Assembly (NCBI GenBank): GCA_002786025.1
Contig: NHNW01000034.1
Span: forward strand, 186,001-250,000
Reading direction: 5' to 3'
Source of the DNA: Zasmidium citrigriseum
Taxonomy: Eukaryota; Ascomycota; Dothideomycetes; Mycosphaerellales; Mycosphaerellaceae
Length of the DNA stretch: 64,000 nucleotides
The notes under the pieces were generated by a model. That model worked only from the letters and a program-made list of their open reading frames with translations. It was not told the DNA's origin and made no database searches. This document shows positions 21,914-22,396 of the stretch, in pieces. The translations under genes and the position numbers were made by a program. Each line of letters begins with the position of its first letter. Positions within the stretch are counted from its first letter, which is position 1.

Positions 21914-22396
21914 CTAAGGAGGACAGTCCTTCCCAGACCCATCTCCATGGCAGTCTGATGGACCGCTGGAGCGGACGGGGCCCTTAGGCTGCGAGGCTTC
22001 GATGAGGGGATCGAGAGCGGCGTCTCTCTTGTGTGGAGGACAGTCTTTCCCAGATCCATCTCCATGGCAGTCTGATGGACCGCTGGGTCGGACGGGGCCT
22101 TTAGGCTGCGAGGCTTCGATGAGGGGATCGACAGCGGCCTCCCTCTTGTTTGGAGGACAGTCCTTCCCAGACCCGTCTCCATGGCAGTCCGATGGACCGC
22201 TGGGACGGACGGGGCCTTTAGGCTGCGAGGCTTCGATGAGGGGATCGACAGCGGCCCTACGCTGTGGTGGGATATTAGTCTTCTGAGCCGTTATTTTGCA
22301 AGCAAGTCATGTCCGCACCTGTTCGAGATTGGCTATCATGGGAGCTGCCAGCGCGACAACGCCGAAGAGAGCGGCGATGAGGGAGGTGGTCTTCAT
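21914..22396 (-). CDS. Secreted Kex2-type tandem-repeat peptide precursor
   Basis: Two exons, 22396-22319 and 22261-21914, with a 57-bp intron (GTGCGG donor, ACTAATA branch-like site, CACAG acceptor); 141 residues. Exon 1 is a signal peptide, MKTTSLIAALFGVVALAAP then MIANLEQ. Exon 2 is three 39-residue units. Each has a dibasic site (RR at 27-28, KR at 65-66, KR at 104-105), a DPLIEASQPKGPVRPSGPS segment, and one cysteine pair in DCHGDGSGKDCPP (C52/C61, C91/C100, C130/C139). Unsplicing gives an immediate stop, and only the spliced frame puts a dibasic site before every unit, which supports the model. The family layout is that of alpha-pheromone or KEP/dikaritin RiPP precursors cut by Kex2. 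The E-A or D-A after KR in units 2 and 3 resembles Ste13-type spacers. Core sequence not recognised; peptide function unknown. Confidence 0.75.
21921..22261. repeat. 117-bp tandem repeat, about three copies
   Basis: GGACAGTCYTTCCCAGAYCC recurs at 21921, 22038 and 22155, exactly 117 bp apart (39 codons). Copies differ at only a few sites, mostly single substitutions, so recent duplication or gene conversion is likely. It encodes the three peptide units on the minus strand. Confidence 0.9.

What the first reader, a model, noticed from the sequence alone, without database searches (positions are those of the whole stretch)
21914..22396. Unrecognised Kex2-processed tandem-repeat peptide precursor
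Seen: signal peptide, one intron, then three near-identical 39-residue units, each after a dibasic site (RR, KR, KR) and each with one C-x8-C pair in DCHGDGSGKDCPP; E-A/D-A directly follow KR in units 2 and 3. Established: fungal alpha-pheromones and dikaritin/KEP precursors share this layout and are cut by Kex2. The cysteine pair ending in G-x-x-C loosely recalls filamentous alpha-pheromones, but the tryptophan and usual spacing are absent. Inference: it releases three copies of a short disulfide-bonded peptide, possibly a pheromone-like signal, an effector or a new RiPP core.
Basis: partly seen in the sequence, partly recalled or inferred. Interest (0 to 1): 0.88.

Follow-up and report, generated by a model that had tools for sequence, protein, structure and literature searches.

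The report
Orphan fungal three-copy secreted peptide precursor
A fungus, probably of the Mycosphaerellales, carries a small gene that looks built to release three copies of a 36-residue secreted peptide with one likely disulfide loop; the design is a known kind, but no relative of the peptide itself was found, and it is not the fungus's usual mating pheromone.

Summary
On the minus strand (22396 to 21914) a 141-residue protein is encoded in two exons around a 57-base GT..CTAAT..CAG intron: a signal sequence, then three 39-codon units after RR, KR and KR, each with one C-x8-C pair. It is probably a real gene: within the 35 peptide codons 2 of 10 changes between units alter the protein, 7.0 expected (P = 0.001; weaker, P = 0.03-0.04, with linker codons), and 3 of 1000 shuffled upstream stretches give a comparable gene start. 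[quoted passage not shown] No relative was found in the protein search or elsewhere in the genome. The pheromone reading weakens: a canonical alpha-pheromone precursor lies on another contig (462 aa, CGVPGQAC eight times), and a search with it found 20 relatives. The UstYa-RiPP reading weakens too: none of the 43 UstYa matches listed lies on this contig. Best reading: a lineage-specific KEP releasing three unmodified, single-disulfide peptides that act outside the cell, not as the alpha-pheromone. The target is unknown. A new member of a known kind, with an orphan core.

The parts
22319..22396 (-). Exon 1: ATG, signal sequence MKTTSLIAALFGVVALAA, short pro-segment PMIANLEQ
   Evidence: hydropathy peak 2.94 over 9 residues; small residues before the expected cut (no SignalP available)
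22262..22318 (-). 57-nt phase-0 intron, GTGCGG...CTAAT...CAG, with an in-frame TGA if retained
   Evidence: inferred from sequence, no transcript data
21914..22261 (-). Exon 2: three tandem 39-codon units after RR, KR, KR; stop TAG at 21916-21914
22142..22261 (-). Unit 1: RR, AAVDPLIEASQPKGPVRPSGPSDCHGDGSGKDCPPN, KR
   Evidence: flanking dibasic codons included
22025..22147 (-). Unit 2: KR, EAAVDPLIEASQPKGPVRPSGPSDCHGDGSGKDCPPH, KR
   Evidence: flanking dibasic codons included, so it shares one KR with each neighbour
21914..22030 (-). Unit 3: KR, DAALDPLIEASQPKGPVRSSGPSDCHGDGSGKDCPP, stop
22456..22461 (-). TATAAA, first base 65 bases upstream of the ATG
   Evidence: chance of such a match not tested

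Best explanation
A lineage-specific Kex2-processed repeat protein (KEP). The protein enters the secretory pathway (inferred from the signal sequence). Kex2 cuts after RR/KR in the Golgi (inferred from the sites and from the genome's Kex2-type gene). A carboxypeptidase trims K/R, and a Ste13-type dipeptidase may remove one X-A (inferred). Three nearly identical peptides of 34 to 37 residues leave the cell, each with a proline-rich N-terminal part and a C-terminal loop closed by one disulfide (C-x8-C; bond inferred). No UstYa-type cyclisation. The peptide acts outside the cell in a role other than the alpha-pheromone, most likely as a secreted signal, effector or competitor-directed peptide; which of these is open.
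For: Intact spliced frame with signal sequence and a dibasic site before every unit. Codon bias: units 1 and 2 encode the same 35 residues despite 5 synonymous differences; mean pN/pS 0.09 and P = 0.00135 over those codons, P = 0.03-0.04 when linker codons are counted. Gene start in 3 of 1000 shuffles. Synonymous changes fall in both the N-terminal part and the loop, so the whole peptide rather than the loop alone looks constrained. Processing enzymes: one P_proprotein (Kex2-type) match, E 1.4e-29, and two DPPIV_N matches. Alpha-pheromone role filled by another gene. None of the 43 listed UstYa matches on contig C77. Of the nearby frames scanned with Pfam, those with a match over cut-off are an aldo-keto reductase, fasciclin proteins and a HET protein; no biosynthetic cluster seen (23 window frames scanned, of 74 non-overlapping frames of 90 aa or more listed).
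Against: No RNA or peptide data. The donor GTGCGG departs from the usual fungal GTRNGT (recalled). The codon bias weakens when linker codons are included. Unit 3 has no dibasic site after it. The N-termini of the three products are out of register by a residue. With three units of recent origin, unit conservation cannot tell which part is mature. P4 of the first site (EQRR) is Glu, not the aliphatic residue that Kex2 prefers, although LEQR there also fits LxxR. The PF11807 search works exon by exon and scores only its best candidates, so a diverged UstYa-like gene could be missed. The protein search needs shared 5-residue words and similar length, so distant relatives can be missed.
Confidence: 0.62

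Rival explanations
1. A second, diverged alpha-pheromone-like signal that uses Ste2 or another receptor. The loop is a remodelled C-xxx-G-xx-C core.
For: Same layout; X-A after every dibasic site; two Cys and G-x-x-C just before K/R; a STE2 receptor is in the genome. A PG or GQ turn is not universal: the commonest core of 4 of the 20 relatives (P0014, P0019, P0020, P0021) has neither.
Against: The canonical precursor is on contig C20. In 20 of 20 relatives it found, the commonest core is C-x3-G-x2-C; here it is C-x5-G-x2-C with no aromatic residue in the unit. BLASTP of the window protein against the 22 proteins fetched: best E 0.20.
Confidence: 0.1
2. A RiPP precursor whose cores are cyclised or otherwise modified by enzymes.
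For: KEP layout is shared with dikaritin precursors; the genome has 43 listed UstYa matches.
Against: None of those 43 is on contig C77 (452 kb); Umemura 2020 gives a mean distance of 3.09 genes between DUF3328 genes and KEP genes (abstract). The unit has no Tyr, Trp or Phe for the known crosslinks (recalled chemistry).
Confidence: 0.07
3. A hyphal-surface peptide like Ustilago maydis Rep1 repellents.
For: Nearly the same length: Rep1 releases 37-aa peptides (Le Marquer 2019, passage seen).
Against: The products are acidic (pI 4.45 to 4.86) and rich in Pro, Gly, Ser and Asp; not an amphipathic or amyloid-like sequence by eye (not computed).
Confidence: 0.08
4. Not a functional gene: a minisatellite with a fortuitous frame.
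For: 117-bp tandem repeats; other frames are also partly open; no relative; odd donor; codon bias only P = 0.03-0.04 with linker codons.
Against: Codon bias within the peptide (P = 0.00135), gene start in 3 of 1000 shuffles, TATAAA upstream.
Confidence: 0.11

Closest known systems
Kex2-processed repeat proteins (KEPs; Le Marquer 2019 PMC6339444, Umemura 2020 PMC7329392)
   Same: Signal sequence; three similar repeats of 8 to 100 aa at dibasic sites; no homolog found, like 2560 of 7878 KEPs in Umemura (abstract and methods section seen).
   Different: No relative of the core found; only three units. Le Marquer's first pass set aside the C-terminal fragment and asked for three similar ones, so this gene would probably have slipped through it (inference).
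Ascomycete alpha-pheromone precursors, Mycosphaerellales type (G000:C20 gene; P0009, P0010, P0020, P0021 and others)
   Same: Signal sequence, KR spacing, X-A after KR, two Cys per unit with G-x-x-C, Cys core just before KR.
   Different: C-x8-C instead of C-x6-C; no aromatic residue; no long EA/DA ladder; the N-terminal part is as conserved as the loop, while the spacers of the C20 precursor vary.
Dikaritin / UstYa RiPP precursors (ustiloxin type)
   Same: KEP layout.
   Different: No listed UstYa match on the contig; no aromatic residue in the unit.
Trichoderma h-type pheromone precursor HPP1 (PMC3068285, abstract seen)
   Same: Three Cys-containing copies with Kex2 sites.
   Different: HPP1 ends in a CAAX box; this protein ends D-C-P-P, so Cys is third from the end.

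Membership tests
KEP (Umemura definition) | Signal peptide | tested here: inconclusive
   Hydrophobic stretch and small residues at the cut by a crude rule; SignalP not available
KEP (Umemura definition) | At least 3 tandem repeats of 8 aa or more, none over 100 aa, between KR/KK/RK/RR sites | tested here: met
   Three units of 36-37 aa after RR, KR, KR; the third is closed by the stop, not by a dibasic site, so strictly two lie between sites (criteria read)
KEP (Umemura definition) | Actual cleavage by Kex2 | not testable with these tools
   Only the enzyme gene was seen
Ascomycete alpha-pheromone precursor | Short core (9-14 aa in Leotiomycetes) preceded by a Ste13 X-A/X-P site and followed by KR, mostly with GQ or PG | tested here: not met
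   36-37 aa product, one X-A far from the Cys loop, no PG or GQ (criteria from passages of PMC10569646). GQ/PG is not strict: absent from the commonest core of 4 of 20 relatives
Ascomycete alpha-pheromone precursor | Sequence relationship to the lineage's alpha-pheromones | tested here: not met
   Best BLASTP E 0.20 among 22 fetched proteins, 20 of them alpha-type; canonical gene found elsewhere
UstYa-type RiPP (dikaritin) | UstYa/DUF3328 gene near the precursor | tested here: not met
   43 PF11807 matches listed in the genome, none on contig C77
UstYa-type RiPP (dikaritin) | Core residue able to take the known crosslink (Tyr/Phe/Trp) | tested here: not met
   No Tyr, Phe or Trp in any unit; chemistry recalled
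h-type pheromone precursor (HPP1) | C-terminal CAAX box | tested here: not met
   Ends K-D-C-P-P; criterion from abstract

The most novel reading that the evidence does not exclude
A second, non-mating peptide signal or effector of a new structural type: a disulfide-clamped, possibly metal-binding loop (D-C-H-G-D-G-S-G-K-D-C, reminiscent of DxDxDG calcium loops with His at the third place; resemblance recalled, not tested) on a flexible arm, released in three copies and with its own receptor or target.
Probability: 0.1. Interest if true: 0.6.

Novelty: new member of a known kind. Interest (0 to 1): 0.33.

Why it matters
KEPs are common in fungi, but in one survey about a third (2560 of 7878, Umemura abstract) had no homologs, and few have a known function. 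This is a compact case with a coding signal and a testable product mass. It comes with the same genome's canonical alpha-pheromone precursor located, so mating and non-mating peptide roles can be told apart.

Tried and rejected
Alpha-pheromone identity: rejected after the canonical precursor was found elsewhere. A first attempt by pattern W-C-x3-G-Q-x-C gave 8 hits, against 4 for the reversed control pattern (2 forward, 2 reverse); by eye none of the 8 sat in a repeat precursor. The true core lacks Trp, so the pattern missed it, and a protein query found it. UstYa cluster: rejected. CAAX/h-type: rejected on the C-terminus. Match on contig C46 (E 0.895): the open frame there is another Cys-containing sequence without the unit or KR repeats, treated as chance. 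Pfam HEAT_PBS (E 0.0099, below cut-off) and three PDB hits (HEAT repeat protein, bGFP-A, alphaRep; E 0.33 to 2.2): chance matches around the EAAVDPLIEA stretch. The whole protein had no PDB match up to E 10. Structure: AlphaFold2 on exon 2 alone, single sequence, mean pLDDT 52.8, pTM 0.12, no secondary structure: uninformative, no fold search made. Rfam over 19000-25500: no match at gathering cut-offs. Promoter motifs: no TGAAACA in either upstream region (437 and 933 bases); a reverse TGAAAC in each; CTTTG 0 against 3 for the pheromone gene: no conclusion. Species: a 5.8S pattern is absent from the assembly; kinship rests on a neighbour's best match, Zasmidium cellare, 47%, and on the alpha-pheromone hits. 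Literature: two literal unit strings in 0 papers; topic searches. Seen: Le Marquer 2019 (abstract, sections 8, 9, 10, 24, passages), Umemura 2020 (abstract, section 6 part 1 of 2, section 13, passages), PMC10569646 (passages), PMC8528282 (passages), PMC3068285 (abstract); other papers only as search listings. Supplementary tables of the two KEP surveys were not open to me, so whether this very gene is listed there is unknown.

Full report
What is there. The minus strand of 21914-22396 encodes a 141-residue protein in two exons. Exon 1 (22396-22319) gives a signal sequence and a short pro-segment ending in LEQ. A 57-nt intron (22318-22262) starts GTGCGG, holds a CTAAT branch-like site and ends CAG; if retained, it brings an in-frame TGA. 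Exon 2 (22261-21914) holds three 39-codon units. The dibasic sites RR, KR, KR precede the units, and cutting there leaves products of 36, 37 and 36 residues. Each has a single cysteine pair, in DCHGDGSGKDC. TRF sees 2.9 copies of 117 bp with 93% matches.

Is it a gene. Units 1 and 2 share all 35 compared residues but differ at five synonymous sites. Over the three pairs mean pN/pS is 0.09. Of 10 inferred changes 2 are non-synonymous, where random placement with the same number of transitions gives 7.0 on average (P = 0.00135 of 20000). This comparison drops the linker codons. With them the signal is weaker: 8 of 16 non-synonymous against 11.5 (P = 0.040; three units, 37 codons, where three different Arg codons at the first place are counted as non-synonymous by the method), and 4 of 10 against 7.1 (P = 0.032; units 1 and 2, 39 codons). 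The peptide part is thus constrained and the linkers are not, apart from the dibasic residues. The changes are spread over the N-terminal part and the loop. A gene start with a crude signal-peptide rule, with or without one intron, reading into the repeat frame occurs in 3 of 1000 dinucleotide shuffles of the 572 bases upstream; the rule was made after seeing the gene. A TATAAA lies 65 bases before the ATG. The donor is the weakest part: the STE2 gene of this genome has a GTGAGT..CTGAC..CAG junction, closer to consensus.

Relatives. The protein has one copy in the genome. No protein scored E <= 10 among 4571 word-sharing candidates of a 5.8-billion set. Two controls show that this set does hold Mycosphaerellales. 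A 431-aa neighbour found 2 proteins, Zasmidium cellare at 47% and Zymoseptoria brevis at 29%. The genome's own alpha-pheromone precursor found 20 proteins; 8 of the 20 bear a species name, from seven species: Pseudocercospora fijiensis, Friedmanniomyces simplex, Hortaea werneckii (two), Elasticomyces elasticus, a Rachicladosporium, Zymoseptoria tritici and Cercospora zeae-maydis. One is given as a clock-controlled pheromone by UniRef (name cut in the listing). Absence of relatives is therefore somewhat informative, though the search needs shared 5-residue words and similar length.

Pheromone test. A Ste2 receptor is present (E 5e-69). A generic tandem alpha-pheromone query led to contig C20 (best E 0.0016), where a 462-aa precursor on the minus strand (about 17.6-19.0 kb) carries 12 cysteine-pair cores, CGVPGQAC eight times, with EA/DA ladders after many of its KR sites. 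In 20 of 20 relatives the commonest core is C-x3-G-x2-C; 16 of the 20 have PG in it, 4 have neither PG nor GQ. The window unit is C-x5-G-x2-C, has no PG or GQ, no aromatic residue and only one X-A. Its best BLASTP match among the 22 fetched proteins is E 0.20. So it shares the layout and probably the processing route, but nothing shows that it belongs to the alpha-pheromone family.

RiPP test. PF11807 (UstYa) matches 43 places in the genome, none of them on contig C77. Umemura reports DUF3328 genes with 22% of KEP genes, at a mean of 3.09 genes (abstract). Of the frames nearest to the gene, those with a Pfam match over cut-off are an aldo-keto reductase, two fasciclin frames and a HET protein; the 431-aa gene next door has none over its cut-off. 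In all 23 window frames were scanned, of 74 listed. The unit has no Tyr, Phe or Trp. An unmodified peptide is the simpler reading.

Mechanism. Shown: frame, sites, codon bias, presence of a Kex2-type gene and two DPPIV_N genes. Inferred: secretion, cutting, trimming, disulfide formation. The KR sites follow P-P-[NH], with Pro at P4, which a review lists among accepted P4 residues (PMC8528282, passage). The first site, EQRR, has Glu at P4, but LEQR also fits the LxxR motif of that review. Function beyond 'secreted peptide, not the alpha-pheromone' is inference. A signal, an effector or a competitor-directed peptide all remain open; a Rep1-like wall role is less likely because the peptide is acidic and hydrophilic.

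Verdict. The pheromone and UstYa-RiPP readings are not supported. It is an orphan member of a known and populous class. A reason why such genes may be overlooked: one published pipeline set aside the last fragment and needed three similar ones, and a gene caller must find a 78-nt first exon with a weak donor (inference).

Noticed in passing
L045:1261-2646 minus (G000:C20, about 17.6-19.0 kb): Canonical alpha-pheromone precursor of this genome, 462 aa, 12 cysteine-pair cores of five types (CGVPGQAC x8, CGTPGALC, CGVPGATC, CATESC, CEQPGSAC): several variant cores in one precursor.
   Followed up: partly
P0009, P0010, P0014, P0020 C-termini: These alpha-pheromone precursors end in a further C-x6-C segment (such as CHGPNGAC) followed by helix-like sequence, which the precursor of this genome lacks.
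   Followed up: no
window 27003-29804: Open frame with a HET domain that also holds a long array of GAGCAACGAGAGCGT-like repeats (27144-27593, several periods).
   Followed up: no
G000 contigs C129, C76, C58, C119, C112: Several UstYa (PF11807) matches close together (some are exons of one gene): possible RiPP gene clusters elsewhere in this genome.
   Followed up: no
window 32351-32672 and 32931-33076: Two more tandem repeats (75-bp and 69-bp periods) inside minus-strand open frames 31536-32882 (no Pfam match) and 32926-33765 (not scanned).
   Followed up: no
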